Of a stretch of 33,711 bases of DNA, positions 112 to 31,958 are shown in pieces. Source of the DNA: a virus; the IMG/VR virus record IMGVR_UViG_3300026521_000361, positions 1-33,711 of that record. One strand, 5' to 3'. Below the pieces are notes generated by a model. It saw only the letters and a list, made by a program, of their open reading frames with translations, had not been told where the DNA came from and searched no databases. The first letter of the stretch is position 1, and each line of letters starts with the position of its first letter. A program made the translations under genes and the position numbers.

Positions 112-373
112 CTAACTTATGAGAGTAAGAGCCTACCACCTCTTGCTCTCTACTACTATCAACTATGCTTCATTCATCCATAACCTCGCTTGATAGGTTA
201 GTGGGTATCTACTTTAACAAGTGCCAATCCTGCGTGGCACATCTATAAGTCAATTCCTAAAAGCTTTGCTTGAAACAATTATCATCAAGCCTCAATATCT
301 ATGCGTATTGCTATCGCCTTCACTTTTAGGAACTCAAAACAAAGTTAAGCTAAAAAGCTGTTTTTTTGTTTTG
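112..373 (+). ncRNA. Inverted-repeat-rich intergenic region, possible structured RNA
   Basis: No credible gene is seen in 112-512, but four strong inverted repeats lie in the first 260 bases. They are 121-131/140-150 (11 bp with one G-U), 221-226/235-240 (perfect, loop 8), 254-263/323-332 (perfect 10 bp) and 335-343/365-373 (perfect 9 bp, with nested AGCT/AGCT and a T-rich right arm). Inside the 254-332 stem are two more hairpins, 268-273/285-290 and 293-297/306-310, giving a three-way-junction shape. The last hairpin could serve as a terminator. Strand is assumed. The region may be a small RNA, the structured 3' UTR of the 24-residue peptide, or part of a recombination site. Confidence 0.35.
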
Positions 374-384
374 TTGATACAATG

Positions 385-399
385 TTACCGATATGGAAA
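385..399. promoter_or_regulatory. Repressor operator, left pair, distal site
   Basis: TTACC-GATAT-GGAAA matches the TTACC-N5-GGTAA palindrome of the repressor/Cro intergenic region with one arm mismatch. Its centre (392) is 34 bp from the next operator centre (426), the same spacing as between two operators in the control region. Confidence 0.6.
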
Positions 400-418
400 T
401 AAAAGTAAGCTTAATTTG

Positions 419-433
419 TTACCTAAATGGTAA
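419..433. promoter_or_regulatory. Repressor operator, left pair, proximal site
   Basis: TTACC-TAAAT-GGTAA has perfect arms. Bases 419-435 are an exact inverted copy of 3034-3050 in the repressor control region. The site ends 7 bp before a TATAAT box (441-446), so bound repressor should block that promoter. Confidence 0.75.
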
Positions 434-440
434 TTTATGA

Positions 441-446
441 TATAAT
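441..446 (+). promoter_or_regulatory. -10 box of the lipoprotein gene promoter
   Basis: TATAAT lies 66 bp before the chosen ATG at 513 and directly after an operator. The TTGTTA at 416-421 is a poor -35 with 19-bp spacing, but Campylobacterota promoters usually lack a conserved -35. A second TATAAT at 489-494 would start transcription almost at the ribosome site, so it is less likely. Confidence 0.55.
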
Positions 447-512
447 TCTTTTTGTAATTAACGAAATATGTATTATTGTGAGTTTAGGTATAATTATGAA
501 AAAAGGATTTTT

Positions 513-935
513 ATGAAAGTTTTATTAGTGTTATTTGTTTTGTATAGTAGTTTGCTATCATGTGATTTAAAGAGAGGATATACAGGGTACTGGTCTATGA
601 GTTGGGAAAAGGGCACAGGAGATGTTAAGATGTATATAACATTAAGAGAAAAAGATGGTGGAAATATTATTTATTCAGCAGTCTTCTTAGAAAATCGTGA
701 TGTTAAAATTGAAAAGAATGGAGATAGAATTACATTATATTTTGGAAAATCAATTTTCGGATATGATAGGGAGAATAATAAGCCAATTTATTATGATGTA
801 GTTTTCAATGGCACTGTTAGTGATGATTGTAACAAGATAGACTTAAAAGCTGATCTTGGCGATGGTAAAAGTATTAATATGTGGTTTGACTACAATGAAA
901 CATATCAATCATTGACAACTTGGAAGTATAGATAA
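513..935 (+). CDS. Small phage lipoprotein, repressor-regulated
   Basis: The start at 513 is preferred over an in-frame ATG at 468. It gives a lipoprotein signal peptide (MKVLLVLFVLYSSLLSC, lipidated Cys17) and has AAAAGGA just upstream, whereas the longer form buries the signal. The mature part, about 124 residues, looks all-beta, with alternating polar and aromatic residues and no recognisable catalytic motif. Asp18 follows the lipidated Cys; in enterobacteria Asp at +2 retains lipoproteins in the inner membrane, but this rule may not hold here. Two repressor operators and a TATAAT box precede the gene. Phage lipoproteins of this size often act in surface change or superinfection exclusion, but no specific function is recognised. 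The stop lies 7 bp from the end of the converging toxin gene. Confidence 0.75.
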   Translation: MKVLLVLFVLYSSLLSCDLKRGYTGYWSMSWEKGTGDVKMYITLREKDGGNIIYSAVFLENRDVKIEKNGDRITLYFGKSIFGYDRENNKPIYYDVVFNGTVSDDCNKIDLKADLGDGKSINMWFDYNETYQSLTTWKYR

Positions 936-942
936 TTTTAAG

Positions 943-1299
943 TTAATTGCTCAATAATTCTAAATCATCACAACCGACAAAAAGTGACTTACAGTTTCTT
1001 TTGTCTTTTATAATTCTCTCATACTCTCTATGTTTTCCTATCCAGGAGGCTATGTATATAGTCTCATCTTCACACTCTTTTACACTTATGAGTATTCTTA
1101 CTTGTGTTTGTGGAAGTACTGTGATAGATATGATAGTGTATGCTTTTTTACAGGATATTTTATGTGGTCTTATATCTTTATTTTTTGGATCTTCTTTGAA
1201 AATATCTATTGTTTTTTGATATTGCTCAAGAGTGATAAGCTTTTTAGCTACTAGCCTATCACGCTTCTTGAAGAAGTTTGGAGTCGCTTTTACTATCAA
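943..1299 (-). CDS. RelE/ParE-superfamily toxin
   Basis: This 118-residue protein has the RelE/YafQ layout: an N-terminal helical hairpin (residues 5-40), then beta strands, with a C-terminal IASWIGKHREYERI segment (83-96) matching the family's 'iG.H.eYdr' ending. Such toxins are usually ribosome-dependent mRNA endonucleases. Basic residues near 44-52 (RPHKISCKK) are plausible RNA contacts, but catalytic residues cannot be assigned safely. The gene overlaps the end of the upstream putative antitoxin by 41 bp, which implies translational coupling. It is slightly longer than typical RelE (about 95 residues), with a C-terminal extension containing two Cys. Confidence 0.75.
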   Translation of the reverse strand: MIVKATPNFFKKRDRLVAKKLITLEQYQKTIDIFKEDPKNKDIRPHKISCKKAYTIISITVLPQTQVRILISVKECEDETIYIASWIGKHREYERIIKDKRNCKSLFVGCDDLELLSN

Positions 1300-1732
1300 G
1301 GTAAGCCTGTGCAGTTTTTTGTGATATGCTAAATTCTATGTTTACTAATGTAGAGTATAGCTCCTCATAGGCATCTAGCAGTGTTGTTTTAAATATGTTA
1401 TCTATAGATTTAATATCTACAGTATCTATAATATTTTCTACTTCATCTTTGAGTTGAGACACTTCATCATCAACAACATTTAAAAGTTCTAAATCTTCAT
1501 CAATATTGTGTATCTCATAAAGTTCTATAAAGTCTCTTATAGTTTGAGCCTTTGCATTTGCTTCATGTGCTGATGCTGTTAATTGCATTACTGTATTTTG
1601 AAGATTTTTTATCTTTTTTTTGAGTAGATAATCTTCTTTATACGATGCAATAGTATCAATAACGCTATTTAAAGCTGTTTCAATATCGAAAGTAGGAAAT
1701 ATCTGTTGTTGGTTTAAATGTAGTGCATTCAT
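1259..1732 (-). CDS. Putative antitoxin, coiled-coil rich
   Basis: The protein has 157 residues and is predicted almost wholly alpha-helical. The region from about 37 to 120 is rich in heptad-like Leu/Ile/Val spacing and acidic residues. No RHH, HTH, AbrB or Phd DNA-binding fold is evident, and it is longer than common antitoxins (60-100 residues). Its role is inferred from position: it lies upstream of, and overlaps, the RelE-like gene. AAGGAG stands before the ATG, with a TACAAT-like box further up on the minus strand. It could be a two-part protein with a C-terminal toxin-binding segment (about 125-157). It could also be unrelated to toxin control. Confidence 0.5.
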   Translation of the reverse strand: MNALHLNQQQIFPTFDIETALNSVIDTIASYKEDYLLKKKIKNLQNTVMQLTASAHEANAKAQTIRDFIELYEIHNIDEDLELLNVVDDEVSQLKDEVENIIDTVDIKSIDNIFKTTLLDAYEELYSTLVNIEFSISQKTAQAYLDSKSDSKLLQEA

Positions 1733-1774
1733 CCAATATCTCCTTTTTCTTTTTGTAATTGTAGCATAAGTGTA

Positions 1775-2368
1775 TTAATGTTTAGTATTTATACCTTGTT
1801 GCTTCAACATATCATTAAGATTTTCAGTAAAATTGATTATTTTTGCATTTTTTAGAATTTGTTTAGGAAGCATAAATGTACCATTAGCACACTTTATCAT
1901 CACCTTATCTTTTGTATGTCTAAATTTTGTTATTTTTGTAACATTATAAAGATGTAAGTCATCTACAATAATTTGAGGTGAATTTTTATTTCCTTTAGAA
2001 AAGTCTGTCTTTTCAAAAGTATTTATTTCATTATCATCATTTGTATATGACTGACGTGAAATTTCTTCATTATTATAATGTCTTTTATTTTTGTTATTTC
2101 TTATGCAATTTTGGTACTCAATCTCTGCATTTCTTTTATCTACTTGATACTGCAGAAAATTATCAATTTCTGTTGTATTTTCTTGTCCTTTTTTTAGATA
2201 TGATTTTCTTTTATTGCATTTATTATTTTGTATATAATTATTGTCAAATTTAATATTTTGTTTTATTTCATCAATATCGTCTATCATATTTCTAAATTGA
2301 CCATACTCATTTGCATCCATAGCAAATACTGTAGTAAATATTAGTATAAAAAATGAAATTTTTATCAT
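1775..2368 (-). CDS. Secreted protein with an ejection-protein-like motif
   Basis: The N-terminus is a Sec signal peptide (MIKISFFILIFTTVFA, cleavage about residue 16), so the mature 180 residues should be periplasmic. The middle is Asn/Lys-rich and probably helical or disordered; the C-terminal third (about 130-185) looks like a small alpha/beta domain with KCANGTFMLP. Residues 61-81 (GQENTTEIDNFLQYQVDKRN plus A) align without gaps to residues 79-99 of the phage protein at 24270-25097, with 14 of 21 identical. The gene starts 12 bp after the repressor gene, with its SD (AAAGGA) overlapping the repressor end, so it is probably made in lysogens. Function is not established; blocking of phage DNA entry is the leading hypothesis. 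Confidence 0.6.
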   Translation of the reverse strand: MIKISFFILIFTTVFAMDANEYGQFRNMIDDIDEIKQNIKFDNNYIQNNKCNKRKSYLKKGQENTTEIDNFLQYQVDKRNAEIEYQNCIRNNKNKRHYNNEEISRQSYTNDDNEINTFEKTDFSKGNKNSPQIIVDDLHLYNVTKITKFRHTKDKVMIKCANGTFMLPKQILKNAKIINFTENLNDMLKQQGINTKH

Positions 2369-2380
2369 TGTAAAATCCTT

Positions 2381-2959
2381 TTATAAATCCGAAATTATCT
2401 TAATGGCTTTAGCACATCTAAGCTCATCTTCCTTAACCATTATAGGCGTAAATCCGTCAGTATTTAGAGGGTATAGTGTTACTATTCCATCTTTTAGCAT
2501 AAACTTTTTAAGTCCGCTATCTCCATCATTTGTAGTGTAGTGTACTATGTTTCCATTTTCACATGGAGCATCTTTATCACACATCACAATATCCCCATGA
2601 GCAATGCGTGGAAGCATACTATCACCCTCAGCAGTAACAGCATAGACACCATCACGAGCAAATTTATCAGGTACAGGTATATACTCAATAATATCATCGT
2701 ATGACTGGCTAGGAACTCCACATGATGCAATTCCTATAAGAGGTATTTGTTTAACTTTTATTGTATCAATATCATGTAGATAGTCAGTTGATACATTAAA
2801 AAATTCAGCAATTTTAGGTATTAATGATGTAGGTATTTCTCTTTTGCCTTTTGCATATCTATTTACATTAGTAGGAGTTTCATTTAAAAACTCAGCCAAT
2901 CTTCTTTGACCACCTCTGCCATAGTCTTCTAATAATTTATTTAATTTTTGATACAGCAC
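2381..2959 (-). CDS. CI/LexA-type repressor, HTH plus S24 autopeptidase
   Basis: This 192-residue protein has an N-terminal XRE-type helix-turn-helix (about 3-62, RRLAEFLNETPTNVNRYAKG) and a C-terminal LexA/UmuD-type S24 domain (about 72-192). The expected self-cleavage site is Cys80-Gly81. The nucleophile is Ser114 in EGDSMLPRI, and the general base is Lys151 (or 152) in SGLKKFML. All elements look intact, so RecA/SOS-dependent inactivation and prophage induction are expected. The start is GTG with AGGGAG upstream. Three operators lie just upstream, one overlapping its own TAAAAT -10 (2984-2989, minus strand), which suggests autoregulation. Confidence 0.93.
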   Translation of the reverse strand: MLYQKLNKLLEDYGRGGQRRLAEFLNETPTNVNRYAKGKREIPTSLIPKIAEFFNVSTDYLHDIDTIKVKQIPLIGIASCGVPSQSYDDIIEYIPVPDKFARDGVYAVTAEGDSMLPRIAHGDIVMCDKDAPCENGNIVHYTTNDGDSGLKKFMLKDGIVTLYPLNTDGFTPIMVKEDELRCAKAIKIISDL

Positions 2960-2983
2960 AATATCTCCCTTATGTAATGAAAT

Positions 2984-3053
2984 ATTTTACCATATAGGAA
3001 ATATCCATTATGGTAACAATTTAAGCTTTTGTTAATTACCATTTAGGTAATAT
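2984..3053. promoter_or_regulatory. Divergent repressor/Cro control region with three operators
   Basis: Three copies of a 15-bp palindrome are visible. They are TTACC-ATATA-GGAAA (2987-3001), TATCC-ATTAT-GGTAA (3002-3016) and TTACC-ATTTA-GGTAA (3036-3050), with centres 15 and 34 bp apart. The first overlaps a minus-strand TAAAAT (2984-2989) facing the repressor gene. The third overlaps a plus-strand TAATAT (3048-3053) facing the Cro-like gene. The layout matches a lambdoid switch with three sites and two opposed promoters. Confidence 0.8.
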
Positions 3054-3059
3054 TTCTTT

Positions 3060-3302
3060 ATGAAAATAATTGATATTGAAAAAAAGACAAACTATTCATC
3101 TGCAAATATTATTAGATGGCTTAATAAGTCAAGACCTATTAAACTTGAAACAGCTAGGGATATTTCAAAAAAAATGAAAGTTCCTATAACAATCTTTGAA
3201 GATGCAAATGTTCAAATCAAATATCTTGGTAAATCTTACCTACAAGAAAATAATACTAAATCAAAAAAAAGTGAACAAGTGATGAAAGGTGCGAAGCAAT
3301 GA
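3060..3302 (+). CDS. Cro-like HTH regulator, probably leaderless
   Basis: The 80-residue protein has an XRE/Cro helix-turn-helix in its first 50 residues (YSSANIIRWLNKSRPIKLET) and a short basic tail (KSKKSEQ). It is transcribed divergently from the repressor and is the first early gene, the position of Cro, so it probably competes for the same operators. No Shine-Dalgarno is seen before the ATG. The TAATAT box at 3048-3053 predicts a transcript start at about 3060, the A of the ATG, so a leaderless mRNA is likely. The stop overlaps the next gene's start (ATGA). Confidence 0.75.
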   Translation: MKIIDIEKKTNYSSANIIRWLNKSRPIKLETARDISKKMKVPITIFEDANVQIKYLGKSYLQENNTKSKKSEQVMKGAKQ

Positions 3303-3544
3303 GAACAGGTGTGCTATTTGGAGAGAATGAAGAGAGTGATGAAGATAAGAAGTTAAATCGCATTACTACAAGTTTTGATGATGAGACTTTTAGGTTTATC
3401 GACGAGATAGCAAAATCAAAAGGTTACTCTCACAGCAAAGTAGTAAATATTCTTTGTAAGTCTGTTTTTAGAGATGTGAAGGATCAAGCAACTTTAATTG
3501 TTGAAAATCCTATTGCTGTAGCGTTTGATTTAGTAACGAAGTAG
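3299..3544 (+). CDS. Ribbon-helix-helix DNA-binding protein
   Basis: This 81-residue protein contains a ribbon-helix-helix core at about residues 20-60: a strand NRITTSFDD, helix ETFRFIDEIAKSKG and helix SHSKVVNILCKSVF. Proteins of this fold bind DNA as dimers and act as phage early regulators (Arc/Mnt-like) or antitoxins. It overlaps the Cro-like gene by 4 bp, so the two are translationally coupled and probably both belong to the genetic switch. No toxin partner follows; the next 263 bp are non-coding. Confidence 0.65.
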   Translation: MRTGVLFGENEESDEDKKLNRITTSFDDETFRFIDEIAKSKGYSHSKVVNILCKSVFRDVKDQATLIVENPIAVAFDLVTK

Positions 3545-12293: not shown

Positions 12294-12719
12294 ATGACTT
12301 ACGGAGAGGTAAAGAAATCAGTTACAGGACTGCTAAGGGGGGATAACTCCAAAGCAGAAGAGTTCTTAACAGCTGATGATACTTATCTCAAAATGGCACT
12401 TAGAGATGTAATGCTTAGATGTATTCCATCTCACTTAGTGTCTTCTTATGATGATACAAAAACCGATGTGTTTCGTAGGATATACAGCACTTACAATGAG
12501 ATTGATGAAGTCTATAATCATTGGTATATAAGAGAGCCTATTGTAAGCATTGATGATAATGCGAAGATAGACATTGATGAAGAGCTTACTCAAGCAGTAA
12601 TCTATTATATGTGTAGTTATTTAACGAATAAAAAGAATGTTGATTATGCAAAGCAGGCACAATCAATAGTTAGCATCTACCAAAGCAACAGTGTAGATTT
12701 TTCACAGTATGAAGTTTGA
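12294..12719 (+). CDS. Head-tail adaptor-like protein (putative)
   Basis: The protein has 141 residues and is helical. It starts MTYGEVKKSVTGLLRGDNSK and has further helices (DTYLKMALRDVMLRCI, ELTQAVIYYMCSYLTNKKNV). Its size, helix content and location straight after the capsid gene suit a connector/adaptor that docks on the portal ring, as gp4-type proteins do in short-tailed phages. No sequence signature makes this certain. It is 3 bp from the capsid stop. Confidence 0.45.
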   Translation: MTYGEVKKSVTGLLRGDNSKAEEFLTADDTYLKMALRDVMLRCIPSHLVSSYDDTKTDVFRRIYSTYNEIDEVYNHWYIREPIVSIDDNAKIDIDEELTQAVIYYMCSYLTNKKNVDYAKQAQSIVSIYQSNSVDFSQYEV

Positions 12720-12736: not shown

Positions 12737-12916
12737 GTGACTGAAAAAGAAGTTGAAAAACTTGTTGAGAAAATGGGTGAAGATATTGAAGAAAAAATAT
12801 CAGTAGAGATCAAAAAAAACAATAGAAAAATAGCAGAAAGAATATTCCTATCTGTTCAGATTACTATACTTTTTCTTGTTTTATTTACTGAGTTTAAAAG
12901 ACTTTTTAATGTCTAA
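12737..12916 (+). CDS. Small coiled-coil/transmembrane protein
   Basis: A GTG start with AAGGG upstream opens a 59-residue frame that reads VTEKEVEKLVEKMGEDIEEK, then a basic stretch, then IFLSVQITILFLVLF as a membrane helix and a short basic end (FKRLF). The N-terminal 25 residues are an acidic amphipathic helix. It resembles small holin-like or XhlA-like proteins in layout but lies far from the lysis genes, among head-tail genes. The end overlaps the next gene's ATG by 8 bp, supporting that it is translated. Function unknown. Confidence 0.6.
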   Translation: MTEKEVEKLVEKMGEDIEEKISVEIKKNNRKIAERIFLSVQITILFLVLFTEFKRLFNV

Positions 12917-13076
12917 GACAATAACAACAAAAGAGCTTGAAAATGCACTTGAAAAACTTGCTATTGAAATGGGTATATCTATAAAAGAGTATCTTGATAC
13001 TACGAAGCCTGTTAATGTAAAACCTGCTAAAGATACGCTTAGAAAACATTTAGGCTTGCATCCAAGAGATAGCTGA
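12909..13076 (+). CDS. 55-residue miniature of the next coiled-coil protein
   Basis: The ATG at 12909 (not an upstream TTG-type start at 12876) gives 55 residues. The N-terminal TTKELENALEKLAIEMGISI and KEYL match TTDELEQALQDLASEMGLSV and KEYV of the 325-residue protein at 13150. The C-terminal TLRKHLGLHPRD matches that protein's KFRASLGLAARD. The roughly 250-residue middle of the larger protein is missing, so this looks like a duplicated and internally deleted copy. It keeps an open frame and both conserved ends. A capping or assembly-competing role is possible. Confidence 0.6.
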   Translation: MSKTITTKELENALEKLAIEMGISIKEYLDTTKPVNVKPAKDTLRKHLGLHPRDS

Positions 13077-13149: not shown

Positions 13150-14127
13150 ATGGCAGATAATGTAACAACAGACGAACTAGAACAGGCGTTGCAAGACTTA
13201 GCCTCAGAGATGGGTTTATCCGTTAAGGAGTATGTAGAGTCATTGGGCTATGCAACAGTTGCAGAACTTCAAGCAGCGGAAGCAAACTTACAAGCACAAA
13301 TCACGGCTATTACAGAGCTTGATGCAGACAATGGTGCTGAGTCGTTAGCTGAGAAAATTGCAGCGATCAATGCAGTTATTTCAGATGAAAATGGTGCAAT
13401 CCAAAATATTCTCGGAAAAATTCTTGAGAACAAGCAGGCTATCTTAGATGAAGTCACTCGTGCTACAGCAGCAGAAGCAGCACTACAGTCACAAATCACT
13501 GCAAATGCAAACAAAACTGCATCAAATGAAGCTGCGATCACAAGCATTGTATCAAAAGCAAATGAGCTAAAAGAAGCTCAAGATGCCGTTAATGCAGATG
13601 TTGAAAATCGTTTATCTGGTGTTGAGGGTACACTTGAGACACTTACTAGTGATGAGACTGTAGATGGATCTATTGCTAAATCTATTGCAGATGAAGCAGC
13701 TCGAACAAATGTGGCAATTTCTACTGCTAAAACAGAAGCTATCGACACTGCAAAAGCTTACACAGATGAAAAAATCGAAGCTATCACTGGTGATACTGCT
13801 ACAACAGTAGCCGGTCTTGATGAGCGTGTAACCGGTGTTGAAAAAACACTAAATGATACAACTGATGAAGATGGAAACCTTGTTAAAGGTGTAGTTACTC
13901 GCTTATCTGATGTTGAAGCAAAAGTCGATGCAAATGAAGTAAAGCGTGTTCAAGAGTTAGAGCAAGCAGTAGAAGAGCTTAAAGCATACTCAGATGCAAG
14001 AGATTTAAAAGCATCTTCTATGGATATTTGCGGCATTGGCAACAAATTCCGTGCATCTTTAGGGCTTGCAGCAAGAGACTGTTCAGGTGGAACATCTGGC
14101 GGTGACGGAGATGGTGCAGTAATCTAA
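13150..14127 (+). CDS. Coiled-coil virion/tail protein
   Basis: The 325-residue protein has an N-terminal module (residues 5-31), then a long stretch (about 40-285) rich in Ala, Glu, Asp and Thr with heptad patterns such as TAAEAALQSQITANANKTAS and KTEAIDTAKAYTDEKIEAIT. This is typical of trimeric coiled coils in phage fibres. The C-terminal segment (289-325) carries MDICGIGNKFRASLGLAARD and a Gly/Asp-rich end. The leader AATCAATACAAAAGGAGTTA gives a strong SD. It is probably a structural fibre or tail component. The paired 55-residue gene upstream shares both ends. Confidence 0.65.
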   Translation: MADNVTTDELEQALQDLASEMGLSVKEYVESLGYATVAELQAAEANLQAQITAITELDADNGAESLAEKIAAINAVISDENGAIQNILGKILENKQAILDEVTRATAAEAALQSQITANANKTASNEAAITSIVSKANELKEAQDAVNADVENRLSGVEGTLETLTSDETVDGSIAKSIADEAARTNVAISTAKTEAIDTAKAYTDEKIEAITGDTATTVAGLDERVTGVEKTLNDTTDEDGNLVKGVVTRLSDVEAKVDANEVKRVQELEQAVEELKAYSDARDLKASSMDICGIGNKFRASLGLAARDCSGGTSGGDGDGAVI

Positions 14128-21811: not shown

Positions 21812-22861
21812 ATGTTGGTATCAAAAGCACTCAACTATATAAACACGATTATTACAGACACAGTAGAGTCATACAAGCTTAGTGAAGACAGTAAAGATGA
21901 TAGTGGAAACTATATAGTTCATCCGCTAGAGAGCAAAGACGATACTAATAAGTTAGAGGCTTTATACTTTGGGTTGAGAGATGCAGCACTCAATACAACG
22001 CCATTAACTCTTTTAGAGAGTAATGATAGCACTGCAACAGAGTTTAAAAAAATATCATCTACTGAGTTTATAAGAGTTCCAACAGAGCCAACTATAGATG
22101 GAGTACTAGATACTGATGAAGGTTTAGCATTTGCAGTTATATATAAAGCACTCTCTTTTTTATGGGTAGGGTACAATGGGTATGCAAGTGATGCAGATGC
22201 TATTTATGCTAGCTATAATGATGCTATGCGTGACTACTTTATGCATAGAGATAGCGATACTGTTTATACAGAAACTATCTTTTTTAGATATTCAAATGAT
22301 GGATCATCATGGCATGATAATTATGTAGATGGAGACATATACATATCATTCAAACAGGGTGATGGAGTATGGAGCAGTGCTATTCGTTTTGTTGGAAAAG
22401 ATGGAGACAGCGGAACTGGAAGCGGAGCTACAACATTTTTAGAGCTTACAGATACGCCAGATACATATACAGCAGGTAAATTTCTTGCAGTAAATGCAGC
22501 AGGTGATGCAATCGAAGAAGTTGATGCACCGGCAGGAGGTGCAGAGCCACAGCCTTTTGATGGAATGAATGGACCAAGTGGAAACATAGCAAAAAACTTT
22601 AAAGAGATCGTGGGTAATTATTATTATGTTGATGTCGGTGGAGATTTAAGCTTTGATATAACAAAAGATGCAGATGGTAATTATGAGATAGATTTAGGTA
22701 AATTATACACTATTGAGTTTATACCAAACGGGCATAATGTAACTTTGGCTTTTGATGCAATGGGTGATAAAACAATAGACAGTACACAAAGTATTGTAAT
22801 GGTAGATATTTTGTTTGATAGCATTGATATTTATATTATGACTATAAGGAATTTTGCATAA
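21812..22861 (+). CDS. Putative tail fibre protein
   Basis: In this 349-residue protein, residues 208-228 hold LELTDTPDTYTAGKFLAVN, a repeat unit common in phage tail fibres and collagen-like phage proteins. Before it is SNDGSSWHDNYVDGDIYISF and a Gly-rich GKDGDSGTGSGATTF, a typical fibre linker. The C-terminal 90 residues are a beta-rich domain (SFDITKDADGNYEIDLGKLY) that could be the tip. The N-terminal 120 residues are helical and probably anchor it. This is the best-supported fibre in the window. Confidence 0.65.
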   Translation: MLVSKALNYINTIITDTVESYKLSEDSKDDSGNYIVHPLESKDDTNKLEALYFGLRDAALNTTPLTLLESNDSTATEFKKISSTEFIRVPTEPTIDGVLDTDEGLAFAVIYKALSFLWVGYNGYASDADAIYASYNDAMRDYFMHRDSDTVYTETIFFRYSNDGSSWHDNYVDGDIYISFKQGDGVWSSAIRFVGKDGDSGTGSGATTFLELTDTPDTYTAGKFLAVNAAGDAIEEVDAPAGGAEPQPFDGMNGPSGNIAKNFKEIVGNYYYVDVGGDLSFDITKDADGNYEIDLGKLYTIEFIPNGHNVTLAFDAMGDKTIDSTQSIVMVDILFDSIDIYIMTIRNFA

Positions 22862-24269: not shown

Positions 24270-25097
24270 ATGCAAATGAAAAGAGATGATGGTACTGTGA
24301 TAGGTACTGAAAGTATTGATTACGGAGCAGGGTTACAGCGACCTGATGGAAGTTATGGAAACAAGGTTACAATGAGTTTTGATCCGCCAAAGCCAAAGAA
24401 AAATAATTTAATTAGTTCACTTGCACAATCACAGCAGCAGTCCTCATATTTTCCTAATAATTTTCCAAATGGCATGAAAGCTCCACAAGTACACTTGCAA
24501 ACCGGAGAGGAGAATACTGCAAAAATAGGAAACTTTTTAAAGTACCTAACAGATAAGCGAAATGCAGGTATGCAGCAACAGTATGATGCAATGAACTTAA
24601 AAAATAGACAGTTTTCACAAAGACTTCAAAATGATAAGTATCAATCGCAGCAAAACAGACTAGAAAAAAAGTATTTGCAAAATCAGAGACTATCTCAACA
24701 AAGGTCACAGTTTGATAAGTCTTTTGACTTTAATGTGCAGAAGTTTGATAGAACACATGACCTTGATATGCAGAAGTTTCAATCATCTTTAGGTGCAAAA
24801 AACAATGGTGAAAAGTATAAACTAGAACGCACTAAAATATTCACTAAAAACCCTGCTGCTCTTGTTCCTGAGTGGGATGATTTAGATGAGGGAATAAAAA
24901 GACAAGTATCTCAATATTATATCAATACAGGAACTATTCCAAACATAAAAAAAGAAGATGGATGGTTTAGTGATACTTACTCCATTGATACGCAAAATAA
25001 AAATACTAATAGAAATAAAACAAATGTATCTCAAAAAACTACTGATGATGAAAAGAAACAGTTTTTAGAATGGAAAAAGCTACAAGGTAATAGTTAA
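24270..25097 (+). CDS. Gln-rich internal/ejection protein (putative)
   Basis: The protein has 275 residues. Residues 79-99 are GEENTAKIGNFLKYLTDKRN plus A, the motif shared with the secreted lysogeny protein at 1775-2368. Residues 100-175 form a Gln/Lys-rich helical segment (QRLQNDKYQSQQNRLEKKYL) typical of podovirus ejection proteins that leave the capsid with the DNA. The N-terminus is flexible and Gly/Pro-rich. It directly precedes the giant polyvalent protein and shares its upstream promoter-like element, so the two are probably co-regulated and packaged together. Confidence 0.6.
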   Translation: MQMKRDDGTVIGTESIDYGAGLQRPDGSYGNKVTMSFDPPKPKKNNLISSLAQSQQQSSYFPNNFPNGMKAPQVHLQTGEENTAKIGNFLKYLTDKRNAGMQQQYDAMNLKNRQFSQRLQNDKYQSQQNRLEKKYLQNQRLSQQRSQFDKSFDFNVQKFDRTHDLDMQKFQSSLGAKNNGEKYKLERTKIFTKNPAALVPEWDDLDEGIKRQVSQYYINTGTIPNIKKEDGWFSDTYSIDTQNKNTNRNKTNVSQKTTDDEKKQFLEWKKLQGNS

Positions 25098-25157: not shown

Positions 25158-28100
25158 ATGGACTACAGACAAGATCCTCTTTATAAAAAATTCAAGCAAG
25201 AACAATCACAAAATAATCAGCAACAAAATTCATCATACAAACAAGATCCACTTTATGCAAAATTCAAACAAGAGAAGCAGCGTTCACAAAAGCGATTAGA
25301 GACTTTAAATGAGTATATTCCTGATTTTGCAGAAGATTTTATTTATGGATCAGCAAAGAACATAGCAGACTACACAGCATCTGCTGCAAAAATGTTCGGA
25401 AACAATGACTTACAAAGAAGAGCAAGAGTTGCAAGTGAAACATTAGATAACAATGTAGGAAATGAATGGGCTAGGCTTGCAGGTGAAATAATAGGTGATC
25501 CACTTAACCTTACTCCTGCCGGTATTGTATCAAAAGGCTCAAAAGTTGGAAAAATTGGAAAAGTTCTTACAAAAACAAAGCCAAGAGCAGTAGCAACAAG
25601 TATGGGATTGGGCGCGGGTATAGGTGCAGGAACTATGGCTGCAAAAGATTACGGAAATGATGCAATGAGTACAACAGAGAAGGTACATGATGCAGAGCTT
25701 GGTGCAGGAATAGTTGCAGGTCTCAATGGTTTAATATCCGCATTTACAAAAGGAAGAGTAAATAATGTAATTAAGCCTGAAATGGTGCAAGGTGCAAAAA
25801 GTGATGAGGATATTGCAAATGCTATACTTAAAAACTCAGATGCTTTTGGGCTTACATCAGATGAAGCGAGTGCCGTTCATTCAGAAGTTTTAAAAGGAAA
25901 ATATCCAAAAGTACCAGATGCATACAAAGTAGAGCAGGCAGGTTTTGTGAAGAAAAGTCAGCCTAATTTCCAAATGCGTCCAAACAATCCACCTGCAACA
26001 ATGGATATAAATACAGCTTTGGCAGTTCTTGCGAGAGAAGCAGATAAAAAGAGGGTAGCACAAGGTTTAGAGCCTATCTATCAACATAAATACCAAGTAC
26101 AGTCACAGTACAGAAAAGAGAGTATTTATCCGCAGCAACAAGAACAGCCATACACTCCAAACTTTGTAAGTGGAGATTTTAACAACAATATACCAGTACC
26201 ATACAATGCAGATGCAGAACTAATGCAAAGATACCATGCAATAGCATCACACCCACGACTACAAGAGCTTTTAAGTATGAGAGAGGGAGTAAGTGCAAAA
26301 GATGCACAAAGTCCTCAGAGAGTAGTTAGTAAAGGCGGATATAGAGAACTTGATGGATATGGCGGAGAGAATAAGCACGCTTACGATAGAGCAGTTTATG
26401 AGAAAAACTATGCACATGATTTCCATCTCACAAAGCAGGACATAGGAAAGCTATACAGAGGACAGTATGATGATAATCTACTCTCAAAGCTTGAAACAGA
26501 TTTAGATACGCTTGATAATCACCCAGACTATGCAGAGCCTATGAGTTCAATAAATGATATTGACTATAAAGAAGAACTTGCAAAGCTTGATGATACAGAT
26601 GTAAGTCTTACGCCTAACGAATGGGAAGAAGCAAATACAGTTTTTGCAAAAGGTTTAGACAATGTAGCAGCAGGAACTTATGCAGGAATAGGGCAGGATG
26701 AAAACGGAAATATAACTTTTGATCCTGAGAAGTTTATCTTAGGTTTAGGCGGATATACAGCAGTAAAAGCAGCACTTAAAAATGGAACTATAAGAGGGAA
26801 GTTAAAAGATATTGCAGTAGATGCACTTGATAGAGTAAACTTTAATCCAGAGGTGCAGAAGCAGGGCAATAGTTTTAACTCAATGAGTCCAGTTAAAATG
26901 GGAGATAACTCATTATCAACTATAGATGATGTAAAAGAAACTTTATCTAAACATAGAGGACAATATACAAACATAGAGTACACAAAAGATAATTGGAATA
27001 AATTATTTCCAAATAATACGGTTGAAACACCATTAGGAAAAGTAAAACTTGGAGAAAATCAATTTGAAAAGCTTGACCCTACAATACCAGACCCTAAAGA
27101 TATTACAAGAGTTAAACAAGACAGAAGACATCATTTATCTTATATTGAACAAACATTAAAAGAACCAGCATTTGCAATAAAAAAAGATGATGGAAGTAAA
27201 TTGTTATATTTTAAAGAAATTGAAAATGGAAACAAAGTTAAACAGTATTCATCAATAATGATAGATAAAGATGGTATGCACATAAGTATATCAAGCCATC
27301 CAATGAACTATAAGCAAATAAAAAAAGAGATAAATAAAAATGATGTAGTGTATATCGCCAAAGAGGTTACAACGAATGGGGCGACAAAATCCCACCCTAC
27401 CTCTAAGATTGTCGAAGACAAAGAGAAGAAAGGGTATGAAATTTCCCTTATTACTGATAACTCCTCTTCAAACAGTAAAATTATACCACAAAAAGAAGAA
27501 AAAAATCTAATAGCCCAACACAACCTAACTGAGGATAATGTAAAGTTTGCCGATAAGCATGGAGGTTTAGCAGTACCAAGTATCGCAATTACTAAAAAAG
27601 ATACTCCGCTTGATGGTTTTGGAGATATTACACTTTTAGGTGATAAAGAGATGATAACACCAAAAAGAGATACTAAAACTTATGGTGCAGATATTTACAG
27701 TCCACGATACCCGCAAGTAAAAAAACAATTATCGCATAAAGCAATTAGAAACATTGAAGATGATTTAAACAAGTATCATAAATTAGTAGGAAATAGTAGC
27801 TATGTAGATCCTGAAAATTTAGCAGATGATTTAGGCTTAAAAATGAAATTCCTTGAAAGCAAAGGTTATTCAAAAGATAAAGTATTGAAATATGATACTC
27901 CTAAAAAAGAAAATATAGAAATTGCAAAAACATTTAAGTCTTTTTATGATGATGGAAAATTAAATAGAGATTATGTGAACGATGATAAATTTATCTTAAA
28001 AGTTAAAGAGTTTTTGAGAAATAAAATAGGTGATGATATAAACGATTGGAGCGAAACACAAATACAAAGAGTTGCAAAAAATTATGCTCAAATAATGAAA

Positions 28101-31100
28101 GATACAATAAGAAAAATGAAAAAAGGTAAATCAGCAGATTTTTATGAAACACGATCAAATGTATCTAATATCATAAACAAGAAACATAGCAAAGAGTTTA
28201 AAGATTATGTAAATAGCTACTATAAGCAACACGGAGCAGAAGAAAAGATTTATGATGGTACAGATAGAAATGGCAGACAAAAATGGATAGACCACACTAT
28301 CGACAATGTAGTTAAGAAACTCAAAAAAAATCTAAGAGGTGGAGAAGGGTTTAACTATGGAACAGGAAGCATACGAGCCTTGCATACTCCACAATTTAAA
28401 ACACTTGCACAAATCCAAAAAGCAAAAGACAAACTTGTTTCTAAAGATGAATTTGAAGCGATAAAGAAAGAGATCGAAGATGAGTATTTTAGAGTAGCAG
28501 ATGAGTTTGATAATCATATAGGAAATAGCAGCTTTGGTAGTGATGAATTTAATGGTGTTCTCTCAGAAATAGCAGATAAACCACTTGATAAGGTTTTACA
28601 TGAATATGGAATTGAAGATCTACCTAAATCAATAAAAGATGATATTGAAAATCTAAAGATAGCTTTGAAAGAGATGCCTACAGAATATTTTGAAACAAAA
28701 ATACTTAGAAAGGTTGATTTAGGAGAGTTCAAAGTAGCTTTAGTTCCAAATGGTACTAGCAAAGAAACTATAGAATTACTAAAGAAAAAGGGCTTAAAAG
28801 TATCAAAATATAATCCTAAAATAGATGGTGCAAGGGCTGAAAAGATAGCAAAAGTTGCAGAAAAAGAGGGTATTTTATTTGTAAATCCTACGCACACAAT
28901 GGCAGGTTCTTTTGCAGGTGGAAGTGATACTGCCATAAATCAAAGAGATTATAATGGAGATGGTAAAACAGACATTATAGATATTTTAATAGGTGCAGGA
29001 ATAGGAGCAGCAGGAATAAACGCACTAAAAAAAGCAGCACCTAAACTCTTTGAAGACGAAGCAGGAAAAGATGGTTTTAAAGCAGGTCTATTTGCAGGCA
29101 GCAAGGCTAAAGGTTTTGATGCAGCAAAAAGAGCCGGTAAAACATTTGACGGGAAATATGATACTTTAGAGCGTTTTGAGATTGATGATAGTAAAGCTAA
29201 GTTAAAAAATTTAGCTAGATATGTAAATACTAAAGATGGAACAAAGCTTGAAAATATACTAGACCATAAAGAGCTGTTTGATAATTACCCAGAGTTGAAA
29301 GATATAAGTGTTAAGTTTCATAATGGTAGTGGATCAAGTTTTTCACGAGATGGCATAGAGATAGGCATTAAAGACTTTAAAACAAAAGACGACTTTAAAT
29401 CTACTCTACTGCATGAGCTTCAACACTCTATTCAAAAAGAGGAAGGTTTTGCGCGTGGAGGATCAGCACAAGAGTTTTATAATGACTTCAAGAAAAAGAT
29501 AAATCTTTTAAAATATGAGTTAGAGTTTGAGCCAGATGATTTCATAAGAGATAAAAAGCTAAAGCAGCTTAGTGAGCTTGAAAGCAAATATAAAGATGGC
29601 GGCAAAGAGGAAGCTTTTAAGATGTATCAAAACCTTGCAGGAGAGATAGAAGCAAGAGATATTCAAGCAAGGGCAGACTATACACCAGAGCAAAGAGAGA
29701 AGATAGCACCATACAGCAGTGAAGATATTGCACAGGAAGATGCAGTAATGCGATTTAATAATGCAAATGAAGATCTTTTTAAAAATATGAGTGAAAATAA
29801 AAAAGAATTTGAAAGTAAGATACAAGAAGCAAAGAAAAAAGGATATGCTCATTTATCTAAAATAGTAAGCAAAGAGGCTCAAAAAGAGTGGGGTGATGCT
29901 GCGAGTACATTAAAAAGATGGTTTACAGATACACTTGGTGCAAAGTACCATGATATAAGAGAGAGTGCAACTGCTTCAACAAATGGTATGAGTGTTAAGC
30001 TTGAGAGGCTACATAGAGCATTGAAAGAGCTAAATGAAGCTGATAGAGTTTCTTTACATGACTACATAGCCGGAGAGACAAATGATATAAATCCAACTTT
30101 AAAACCACTTGCGGACAAGCTTAAACAAGATATTGATAATTTAAGTAAGGATTTAGTTTCAAAGGGTGTATTAACACAGGAACAATATGATGAGTGGGCA
30201 GGGTACTACATACATAGAAATTATGAGCAACACTTTTTTAAAGATGTAAAAAATCTTATGAAAAGAGGTTTTAAAATTGATGATATACATAAACGAGGTA
30301 ATATACAAGAAATAAGTGAAAAAGAAGCTAAAAAGTTGCTTGTTGATCCTAAGTTCATAGCAAGTACACAAAAGCCTCTTAGAGATGGTGGGCAGAGATT
30401 AACAAAACTTGCAAACGGAAAGTATGAGTTAAGAAGAGACTGGACCAGAGCAGAGCGTGATGCTATGAATGAGATAAGAGATGGTGCAATTACAATTCCT
30501 GAGACTCTTATGAGGCTAAAAAGAATGGCAGATAATGCAAAGTTTTTAGAAGATGTATCGAAGATTGATGAAGTGATACTCAAAGATGCTGAGAAGTTTA
30601 GTGATGATGAGATAAGCGCAGCAGGTTTTGTAAAAGCTCCTAACAGCCCTAAATATGGAGTGCTAGCAGGAAAACATATACGAAAAGATGTGTTTGATGA
30701 TATAAGTGCTAGAAATGATGAGATATTTAATACTTTTTATGGTAGCGATGGAGCTATTGCTCGAATATGGAAAAACTATTTATCTCTTTGGAAAAAGTCA
30801 AAAACTGTTTGGAATGTTCCATCACATCTTAATAACTTTATGAGTAATCAATTTTTAATGCACTTAGCAGGTATGAGGGCTGATGAAATTGTTACATCAA
30901 TAGGTCGTGCAGGAAAAATGATGTATGAAGGAAACAGACTTGAAAAACTGATGCAGAAAAAGATGCTAGGACAGGCAACAAAAGCAGAGTTAAAAGAGCT
31001 TGAAGATATGGGAGAAGATTTAAAGTACTTCTTAGAGGCTAAAGATGGTGGGCTACTTGGAAGAAGTCAGTTAAACGACATACTTGCAGGACAGCAAAAG

Positions 31101-31958
31101 ATTGATAAAAAGGGTGTACTTGGAAAGATAGACAAGTTTAGTGAGGATATGTATCATGGAGAAGATGCTATAAATAAAATTGCAATGTATGCTCATTTAA
31201 GAGAAAAAGTAGGAATGAGTGCAGATGAAGCAAGAAAAGCAGTTTTAACAATAATGCCGGACTATTCTAAGCCGATGCCCATGGGGTACAGGGTATTAAG
31301 AGATACTGGAATAAGCCCTTTTATCTCTTGGAGTTATTACACTATGCCTGCTATTTGGAAACTTCTTAAAACAAGTCAAGGAGCGAAAAAAGCATCTTTA
31401 GCGATGGGAACACTAGCAGGACTTGAATATGTACTTACCGGTGGAGCAGTTACACCGCTTGATAATATTCCTTTCTATGGCGGAAACAAGCCAGAAGACT
31501 TCAAAGGGCGTAGGTTTGGAATAGGAAGAAGTGGAGACACTATACATACTTTAAAGACTGATAGATGGATACCATACATTGAGCTAACTGATCCTATAAA
31601 CTTTTTTGTATCTAATATAAGTGGACCATCAACAAATGCAGTAGTAAATACACTAACTTCACTAAGCAAAGCAGGAATGATTAACCCATATTATGGGCGA
31701 CCTGTTACATATAAAAACAAAGGTGCAGGGCAAAAAGCATATGACTATGCGAAGTACCTAACACAAAGCTATGTGCCGCTACCTGCTCAAGCTTATAGTG
31801 GTTGGAACTTAATAGAGAGTTTAGCAAGAAGTAAGAAAAATAGAAGAAGAAATAAAGTTATAGAGCCTAGAACACCAACACAAGAGATATTGAAAAATAT
31901 CGGTCTTAACTCATTAAGCTACTCAAGAAGTCAAGCACGCAAAGAGAACAATGATTAA
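25158..31958 (+). CDS. Giant polyvalent ejection protein, 2266 residues
   Basis: Long podovirus proteins of this kind enter the cell with the DNA. Visible parts, by approximate residue: 3-15 and 27-39, tandem repeats YRQDPLYKKFKQE and YKQDPLYAKFKQE; 144-166, a Gly/Ala hydrophobic segment; 590-750, a barnase/EndoU/ColicinE5-RelE-like nuclease domain of the polyvalent type (TPLGKVKLGENQFEKL, RRHHLSYIEQTLKEPAFAI); 790-834, the polyvalent block KHGGLAVPSIAI and DGFGDITLLGDKEMI. Then 1264-1275, an EF-hand-like loop DYNGDGKTDIID before a hydrophobic Gly/Ala helix; 1419-1423, HELQH in STLLHELQHSIQKEEGFARG, a zincin-type metallopeptidase, with AGEIEARDIQAR further on; 1870-2100, a C-terminal helical domain (WNVPSHLNNFMSNQ, MPDYSKPMPMGYRVL) like large-polyvalent-protein-associated domain 38. 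Activities are inferred from motifs. Confidence 0.8.
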   Translation: MDYRQDPLYKKFKQEQSQNNQQQNSSYKQDPLYAKFKQEKQRSQKRLETLNEYIPDFAEDFIYGSAKNIADYTASAAKMFGNNDLQRRARVASETLDNNVGNEWARLAGEIIGDPLNLTPAGIVSKGSKVGKIGKVLTKTKPRAVATSMGLGAGIGAGTMAAKDYGNDAMSTTEKVHDAELGAGIVAGLNGLISAFTKGRVNNVIKPEMVQGAKSDEDIANAILKNSDAFGLTSDEASAVHSEVLKGKYPKVPDAYKVEQAGFVKKSQPNFQMRPNNPPATMDINTALAVLAREADKKRVAQGLEPIYQHKYQVQSQYRKESIYPQQQEQPYTPNFVSGDFNNNIPVPYNADAELMQRYHAIASHPRLQELLSMREGVSAKDAQSPQRVVSKGGYRELDGYGGENKHAYDRAVYEKNYAHDFHLTKQDIGKLYRGQYDDNLLSKLETDLDTLDNHPDYAEPMSSINDIDYKEELAKLDDTDVSLTPNEWEEANTVFAKGLDNVAAGTYAGIGQDENGNITFDPEKFILGLGGYTAVKAALKNGTIRGKLKDIAVDALDRVNFNPEVQKQGNSFNSMSPVKMGDNSLSTIDDVKETLSKHRGQYTNIEYTKDNWNKLFPNNTVETPLGKVKLGENQFEKLDPTIPDPKDITRVKQDRRHHLSYIEQTLKEPAFAIKKDDGSKLLYFKEIENGNKVKQYSSIMIDKDGMHISISSHPMNYKQIKKEINKNDVVYIAKEVTTNGATKSHPTSKIVEDKEKKGYEISLITDNSSSNSKIIPQKEEKNLIAQHNLTEDNVKFADKHGGLAVPSIAITKKDTPLDGFGDITLLGDKEMITPKRDTKTYGADIYSPRYPQVKKQLSHKAIRNIEDDLNKYHKLVGNSSYVDPENLADDLGLKMKFLESKGYSKDKVLKYDTPKKENIEIAKTFKSFYDDGKLNRDYVNDDKFILKVKEFLRNKIGDDINDWSETQIQRVAKNYAQIMKDTIRKMKKGKSADFYETRSNVSNIINKKHSKEFKDYVNSYYKQHGAEEKIYDGTDRNGRQKWIDHTIDNVVKKLKKNLRGGEGFNYGTGSIRALHTPQFKTLAQIQKAKDKLVSKDEFEAIKKEIEDEYFRVADEFDNHIGNSSFGSDEFNGVLSEIADKPLDKVLHEYGIEDLPKSIKDDIENLKIALKEMPTEYFETKILRKVDLGEFKVALVPNGTSKETIELLKKKGLKVSKYNPKIDGARAEKIAKVAEKEGILFVNPTHTMAGSFAGGSDTAINQRDYNGDGKTDIIDILIGAGIGAAGINALKKAAPKLFEDEAGKDGFKAGLFAGSKAKGFDAAKRAGKTFDGKYDTLERFEIDDSKAKLKNLARYVNTKDGTKLENILDHKELFDNYPELKDISVKFHNGSGSSFSRDGIEIGIKDFKTKDDFKSTLLHELQHSIQKEEGFARGGSAQEFYNDFKKKINLLKYELEFEPDDFIRDKKLKQLSELESKYKDGGKEEAFKMYQNLAGEIEARDIQARADYTPEQREKIAPYSSEDIAQEDAVMRFNNANEDLFKNMSENKKEFESKIQEAKKKGYAHLSKIVSKEAQKEWGDAASTLKRWFTDTLGAKYHDIRESATASTNGMSVKLERLHRALKELNEADRVSLHDYIAGETNDINPTLKPLADKLKQDIDNLSKDLVSKGVLTQEQYDEWAGYYIHRNYEQHFFKDVKNLMKRGFKIDDIHKRGNIQEISEKEAKKLLVDPKFIASTQKPLRDGGQRLTKLANGKYELRRDWTRAERDAMNEIRDGAITIPETLMRLKRMADNAKFLEDVSKIDEVILKDAEKFSDDEISAAGFVKAPNSPKYGVLAGKHIRKDVFDDISARNDEIFNTFYGSDGAIARIWKNYLSLWKKSKTVWNVPSHLNNFMSNQFLMHLAGMRADEIVTSIGRAGKMMYEGNRLEKLMQKKMLGQATKAELKELEDMGEDLKYFLEAKDGGLLGRSQLNDILAGQQKIDKKGVLGKIDKFSEDMYHGEDAINKIAMYAHLREKVGMSADEARKAVLTIMPDYSKPMPMGYRVLRDTGISPFISWSYYTMPAIWKLLKTSQGAKKASLAMGTLAGLEYVLTGGAVTPLDNIPFYGGNKPEDFKGRRFGIGRSGDTIHTLKTDRWIPYIELTDPINFFVSNISGPSTNAVVNTLTSLSKAGMINPYYGRPVTYKNKGAGQKAYDYAKYLTQSYVPLPAQAYSGWNLIESLARSKKNRRRNKVIEPRTPTQEILKNIGLNSLSYSRSQARKENND

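What the first reader, a model, noticed from the sequence alone, without database searches (positions are those of the whole stretch)
1775..2368. Periplasmic lysogeny protein shares a 21-residue motif with the phage's own ejection protein
Residues 61-81 of the secreted protein and 79-99 of the Gln-rich protein at 24270 align without gaps with 14/21 identities (pattern G-x-ENT-xx-I-x-NFL-x-Y-xx-DKRNA). The secreted protein lies 12 bp downstream of the repressor and has a signal peptide, so it should be in the periplasm of lysogens, where incoming ejection proteins assemble. A decoy that mimics or binds the ejection apparatus would be a new mode of superinfection exclusion.
Basis: partly seen in the sequence, partly recalled or inferred. 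Interest (0 to 1): 0.85.

Follow-up and report, generated by a model that had tools for sequence, protein, structure and literature searches.

The report
Exported chimera carrying ejection-protein segment
A temperate phage of Sulfurimonas-type bacteria carries, right behind its repressor gene, an exported protein that looks like a piece of the phage's own DNA-ejection protein joined to a module from host secreted proteins, which may let a lysogen jam the entry machinery of related phages, but no function has been tested.

Summary
Secreted-protein residues 61-81 and Q-rich-protein residues 79-99 share 14/21 positions. The similarity is longer than reported (27-81 versus 46-99 by profile alignment) and is neither chance nor a common helix: score 97 versus a maximum of 58 in 2000 shuffles, and no credible second occurrence in 399 genomes of the host order.

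The secreted protein is a chimera. It has a signal peptide, an ejection-protein-like helical segment, and a C-terminal module homologous to exported chromosomal proteins of Sulfurimonas. Both modules are under purifying selection (dN/dS 0.17 and 0.13); the linker is not (1.1).

The gene sits in a swap slot directly behind the CI repressor. A phage 99.2% identical elsewhere has a 134-aa membrane protein there, and a third relative a 65-aa membrane protein. A second, more divergent phage keeps both the chimera (81%) and the motif-bearing Q-rich protein (62%).

Best explanation: an envelope-located superinfection-exclusion factor that presents a copy of the ejection protein's helix start and poisons conduit assembly; analogous to P22 SieA and T4 Spackle, but by mimicry. 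The sequence anatomy is shown; lysogen expression, location, binding and exclusion are inferred. One relative has the motif in its Q-rich protein but no chimera, so the pair is not obligatory.

The parts
1775..2368 (-). Exported chimeric protein, 197 aa (signal peptide 1-16/17, ejection-protein-like helical segment 27-81, linker ~97-128, host-type C-terminal module ~129-190)
   Evidence: ORF; motif and homology; host module; 81% relative in G002
2126..2188 (-). The 21-residue motif (residues 61-81), start of a predicted helix
   Evidence: dN/dS 0.09 between window and G002; helix 68-95 in a low-confidence model
1799..1984 (-). C-terminal module (residues ~129-190) shared with exported chromosomal proteins of Sulfurimonadaceae
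   Evidence: 11 of 228 genomes of the family, best E 1e-30 with the module profile; reciprocal BLASTP 44% over 57 aa, E 2e-11
2376..2380 (-). AAGGA ribosome-binding site in the 12-bp gap behind the repressor gene
   Evidence: sequence; no terminator-like site found in 200-3400
2381..2959 (-). CI-type repressor (HTH + S24 peptidase), upstream neighbour in the same transcription direction
   Evidence: Pfam Peptidase_S24 1.3e-19, HTH_3 4.4e-7; PHROG 4 transcriptional repressor
1791..2357 (.). Slot: stretch absent from the near-identical phage G003 (L105), which carries a different gene here
   Evidence: window 938-1790 and 2358-2752 align to L105 945-1797 and 2167-2558 at 98.6% and 95.7%; the L105 slot gene is a 134-aa polytopic membrane protein
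24270..25097 (+). Gln-rich protein, 275 aa, putative ejection (internal virion) protein; long helix 80-170 predicted
   Evidence: position directly upstream of the giant protein here and in relatives; model with pLDDT 62
24504..24566 (+). Motif copy in the Gln-rich protein (residues 79-99), start of the predicted long helix
   Evidence: conserved in G001, G006, G008; replaced in G005 and G012
25158..31958 (+). Giant protein, 2266 aa, with PBECR5 and (below cut-off) PBECR2 nuclease-like domains; putative co-ejected partner
   Evidence: Pfam PBECR5 2.5e-20

Best explanation
The gene makes an exported, envelope-located superinfection-exclusion factor, expressed from the prophage together with the repressor. 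Its helical half is a copy of the start of the long helix of the phage's Q-rich ejection protein, carried on a C-terminal module borrowed from host exported proteins. When a related phage injects its ejection proteins, the decoy joins or caps the assembling conduit, or occupies the partner that the ejection protein's N-terminal segment needs, so that DNA does not cross the periplasm. Shown by sequence: the shared segment, the chimeric architecture, selection on both modules, the exchangeable slot behind the repressor, and other slot alleles that are membrane proteins. Inferred: expression in lysogens, periplasmic location, a Cys51-Cys88 disulfide bracketing the motif, that the Q-rich protein is ejected, and that the contact blocks entry.
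For: (1) Motif and longer homology far beyond chance. (2) sec 27-81 matches the Q-rich family (probability 94%), sec 74-184 matches a host exported family (97%), and the host family does not match the Q-rich family (0.07%). (3) dN/dS 0.17 (Q-like segment), 0.09 (motif) and 0.13 (C-module) against 1.1 for the linker. (4) The gene is swapped almost exactly at its ends in G003, 99.2% identical over 14.9 kb, for a polytopic membrane protein; G047 has a 65-aa membrane protein in the slot; all three alleles are envelope-type by hydropathy. (5) A second phage keeps both parts: G002 and G006 overlap at 99.3% over 10 kb and together hold the chimera (81%) and the motif-bearing Q-rich protein (62%). (6) 12-bp gap to the repressor, ribosome-binding site, no terminator-like site. 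(7) Precedent: P22 SieA, a prophage-expressed inner-membrane protein, blocks injection, and escape mutations lie in ejection proteins gp16 and gp20 (PMC10883804); T4 Spackle is a disulfide-bonded periplasmic protein that binds an incoming virion protein (PMC7677548).
Against: No function, expression or binding was tested. G047/G001 has the motif in its Q-rich protein but no chimera. The chimera's motif is not tuned to its own phage's copy. The Q-rich protein's ejection role rests on position. The structure models are poor (pLDDT 40 and 62). Only two chimera sequences are known. Some other exported phage-borne genes are lysogenic-conversion factors with no role in exclusion.
Confidence: 0.45

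Rival explanations
1. Lysogenic-conversion factor: a host-type exported protein captured by the phage and useful to the lysogen (envelope or surface function). The ejection-protein-like segment is used to bind a shared envelope partner and has no role in exclusion.
For: The C-terminal module belongs to chromosomal exported proteins with diverse N-terminal parts. A second exported gene nearby (468-935) also varies between relatives. G047 does without the chimera.
Against: Does not explain why the segment matches the phage's own virion protein so closely and is under strong constraint, nor why the slot's other alleles are membrane proteins of the kind seen for exclusion genes.
Confidence: 0.28
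2. The segment came the other way or has a shared helper role: the Q-rich protein and the exported protein both carry a docking element for one envelope or phage partner, and the exported protein assists DNA entry or conduit anchoring.
For: The N-terminal half of the Q-rich protein is itself exchangeable (type I in window, G001, G006, G008; another type in G005), together with the adjoining tail genes, as expected for a segment touching something variable such as the host envelope. The direction of transfer cannot be fixed from six sequences.
Against: A helper would be needed in naive cells before infection, whereas this gene sits with the repressor; it is missing from G047, which has the same Q-rich type.
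Confidence: 0.15
3. Convergence or a generic coiled-coil-like helix without common origin.
For: Both segments are predicted helical and rich in Asn, Lys and Gln.
Against: Score 97 against a shuffle maximum of 58; no credible match elsewhere in 399 genomes; the match includes the ENT-x(2)-I-x-NFL-x-Y pattern and extends beyond the helix start.
Confidence: 0.04

Closest known systems
P22 SieA superinfection exclusion (PMC10883804)
   Same: Prophage-expressed envelope protein of a short-tailed phage; target is the ejection-protein conduit; several unrelated sequence types exist among related phages
   Different: [quoted passage not shown] the protein here is predicted to be exported and carries a segment homologous to an ejection protein
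T4 Spackle (PMC7677548)
   Same: Small exported helical protein with a cysteine pair, acting in the periplasm against an incoming virion protein
   Different: Made in lytic infection; inhibits gp5 lysozyme by binding and is not a copy of it; no sequence match of the chimera to any solved chain
Ltp of Streptococcus phage TP-J34 (PMC3952083)
   Same: Prophage-expressed exported protein that targets the DNA-delivery protein (tape measure)
   Different: Gram-positive lipoprotein; works through repeat domains with negative charges, not through a copy of the target; the chimera has no lipobox by inspection
Unnamed exported proteins of Sulfurimonadaceae with the same C-terminal module (L146-L148, L150, L162, L164, L173)
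   Same: Most have an N-terminal signal-like stretch, a variable middle and the ~60-aa C-terminal module
   Different: None carries the ejection-protein segment; function unknown; the module has no credible PDB match, and the members scanned have no significant Pfam match

Membership tests
Superinfection-exclusion protein (functional class) | Blocks DNA entry of superinfecting phage when expressed alone | not testable with these tools
Superinfection-exclusion protein (functional class) | Encoded for expression in the prophage state | tested here: inconclusive
   Same strand, 12 bp behind the CI gene, ribosome-binding site, no terminator-like site; no expression data
Superinfection-exclusion protein (functional class) | Located in the cell envelope | tested here: inconclusive
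   Hydrophobic N-terminus with signal-peptide character; homologous host proteins also carry such N-termini; no dedicated predictor
P22 SieA family | Multi-pass inner-membrane protein with sequence similarity to SieA | tested here: not met
   Only an N-terminal hydrophobic stretch; no significant PADLOC, PHROG, Pfam or NCBIfam match; no direct comparison with SieA was made
T4 Spackle family | Sequence or structural match to Spackle | tested here: not met
   phmmer against all PDB chains: no match up to E 10; fold not reliably modelled
Ltp-type lipoproteins | Lipobox cysteine and repeat domains | tested here: not met
   No cysteine near the cleavage site; cysteines only at 51, 88 and 160
SU10-like ejection proteins | Q-rich protein present in virions and released at ejection | not testable with these tools
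   Position only: directly upstream of a giant protein in window, G001, G006, G012, G017, G018, G020, G023 and two prophages; SU10-type portal and capsid in the window
Exported Sulfurimonadaceae family with this C-terminal module | Homologous ~60-aa C-terminal module behind a signal-like N-terminus | tested here: met

The most novel reading that the evidence does not exclude
A temperate phage defends its lysogen with an exported molecular mimic: a piece of its own ejection protein grafted onto a host secreted-protein module, which co-assembles with and poisons the DNA-delivery conduit of incoming relatives. That would be exclusion by decoy or dominant-negative virion fragment.
Probability: 0.33. 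Interest if true: 0.85.

Novelty: new variant of a known kind. Interest (0 to 1): 0.62.

Why it matters
The exclusion proteins known to me that act on DNA delivery bind their target without resembling it. A prophage protein built partly from the virion's own ejection protein would show that phages can turn a copy of a delivery component into a blocker, and would give a direct handle on how ejection proteins assemble in the periplasm. It also suggests a simple search rule: look next to repressors for exported proteins that share segments with the same phage's internal virion proteins.

Tried and rejected
Chance or common helix: rejected. Recent gene conversion between the two genes: rejected, because 8 of 14 shared residues use different codons and the two chimeras are closer to each other than to either Q-rich copy. 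Known families: nothing significant in Pfam, PHROGs, PADLOC, NCBIfam or PDB for the chimera and nothing in INPHARED phages for either protein. Family-wide origin of the motif in distant ejection proteins: they have a conserved element at the same place (SLLTxEGFNxALxxVxxRNNAKL), but profile alignment did not join it to the motif, so direction of transfer stays open. Other slot alleles as further mimics: no match to any virion protein fetched. Other phages with the host C-module: none found beyond G002. Papers on a decoy or dominant-negative virion protein in exclusion: none found with the terms tried. Structure models of both proteins were too weak for fold searches; the multimer test was not available.

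Full report
What was claimed and what is there. ORF 1775-2368 (-) encodes 197 aa and starts 12 bp behind the CI-type repressor gene 2381-2959. ORF 24270-25097 (+) encodes a 275-aa Gln-rich protein directly upstream of a 2266-aa giant protein. Their residues 61-81 and 79-99 share 14 of 21 positions without gaps. BLASTP of the pair gives E 8e-9, and the best ungapped score of 97 compares with a maximum of 58 in 2000 shuffles of both proteins. Profile alignment lengthens the match to sec 27-81 against Q 46-99, 42% identity, probability 94%. Among 41 window proteins it is one of three strong within-genome similarities.

Not a common helix. A profile of the segment was run over 399 genomes of the host order. 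Apart from the phage itself, only four marginal matches came up; the two best fall in an MgtE-like transporter and an autotransporter-like protein. In viral contigs the segment was found only in this phage group. At DNA level 44 of 63 bases agree and 8 of 14 shared residues use different codons, so the similarity is old and kept by selection.

Phage and host. Portal and capsid are SU10-like. A near relative (97% terminase) lies on a 37,949-base contig of a Sulfurimonas MAG, G047, and is 100% identical to viral contig G001 over the stretches compared. The window lacks the integrase region that G047 has, so it is probably a slightly incomplete genome.

The exported protein is a chimera. Searching 135 genomes of the host genus with the two chimera sequences brought up chromosomal proteins of about 165 aa with a signal-like N-terminus. 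Profile alignment joins them to chimera residues 74-184 (probability 97%), while the same host family does not align to the Q-rich family (0.07%). The core of this second match is the C-terminal module, residues ~129-184; the part 74-128 is weak on its own. With a profile of the module, 11 of 228 genomes of the host family have a hit, typically at the C-terminus of otherwise different exported proteins. No Pfam or NCBIfam family matches the chimera, and no PDB chain credibly matches the module.

Selection. Between the window and the G002 copy (81% identity) dN/dS is 0.17 for the Q-like segment, 0.09 for the motif, 0.13 for the C-module and 1.1 for the linker at 97-128. These rest on few substitutions, but the pattern is that of two constrained modules on a free linker. 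Cysteines 51, 88 and 160 are conserved; 51 and 88 bracket the motif, and the Q-rich protein has none. A disulfide between them is inference.

A swap slot. Phage G003 (L105) is 99.2% identical to the window over 14.9 kb. Its match to the window breaks at window 1790 and resumes at 2358, that is, at the ends of the chimera gene; in its place is a 134-aa polytopic membrane protein. G047 has a 65-aa membrane protein directly behind its repressor. In G025 (L037) the gene behind the repressor resembles, by inspection, the one that lies beyond the chimera here. So the chimera is one of at least three alleles of an envelope-protein slot behind CI.

Do the two partners travel together? Contigs G002 and G006 overlap at 99.3% over 10,052 bp and so represent one phage type; together they carry the chimera (81%) and a motif-bearing Q-rich protein (62%). 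G047 has the motif-bearing Q-rich protein without a chimera. The chimera's motif scores 14/21 to its own phage's Q-rich copy and 15/21 to that of G006. This fits a factor aimed at a group of related phages rather than at self.

The Q-rich protein. In distant relatives a gene at the same place, next to a giant protein, encodes similar proteins. The first half of the Q-rich protein is exchangeable: in G005 only residues from about 119 on match, and its first half resembles the distant family. The motif lies at the start of a predicted long helix (moderate confidence). That it is an ejection protein is inferred from position and composition.

Mechanism. The best-supported reading is an envelope-located exclusion factor acting on the ejection conduit. 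P22 SieA shows that prophage envelope proteins do target ejection proteins (PMC10883804), and T4 Spackle that a small disulfide-bonded periplasmic protein can bind an incoming virion protein (PMC7677548). What would be new is doing so with a copy of the target. [quoted passage not shown] None of the functional steps has been tested here.

Limits. Only two chimera sequences exist in the collections searched; the structure models are poor; signal peptide and membrane segments rest on hydropathy; direction of transfer of the segment is open.

Noticed in passing
window 468-935 (+), L105 467-964, L102 1644-2096, L156 16154-16558: A second exported gene near the slot: the first ~16 residues (MKVLLVLFVLYSSL) are nearly constant between relatives while the mature part is exchanged; in the window and G047 copies the stretch ends in a lipobox-like SC, in G002 and G003 not.
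   Followed up: partly
window 2752-3230 versus L105 2558-3020: The DNA-binding half of the repressor and the neighbouring operator/Cro-like region are swapped between phages that are otherwise 99% identical, i.e. probably different immunity types.
   Followed up: partly
L095 11878-14304, L096 488-2869, L017 30-2222: The terminase large subunit of G001/G047, G005 and one more contig has an extra ~310 residues inserted at residue 77, next to the Walker A motif; looks like an intein, absent in the window.
   Followed up: no
window 24270-25097 versus L097 8248-9123: The Q-rich protein is mosaic: its first ~118 residues exist in at least two types without detectable similarity that change together with the adjoining tail genes.
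   Followed up: partly
L146-L148, L150, L151, L153, L162, L164, L173: Unnamed ~60-aa C-terminal module on diverse exported chromosomal proteins of Sulfurimonadaceae, patchy (11 of 228 genomes), one copy beside transposase genes; no known family found.
   Followed up: partly
window 943-1299 and 1259-1732 (-): Overlapping gene pair beyond the slot that looks like a toxin-antitoxin module (RelE-like by eye; no family match above cut-off), present in G003 at 98.6% and absent from G047 and G002 at this place.
   Followed up: no
window 12294-12719 and 21812-22861; 12876-13076 and 13150-14127: Two other within-genome similarities (E 1e-7 and 2e-8): a short gene matching part of a tail-fibre-like gene, and a short ORF repeating the start of its downstream neighbour.
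   Followed up: no
window 25158-31958: The giant protein carries PBECR5 and weak PBECR2 nuclease-like domains, and its middle is shuffled between relatives while the ends are better kept.
   Followed up: no
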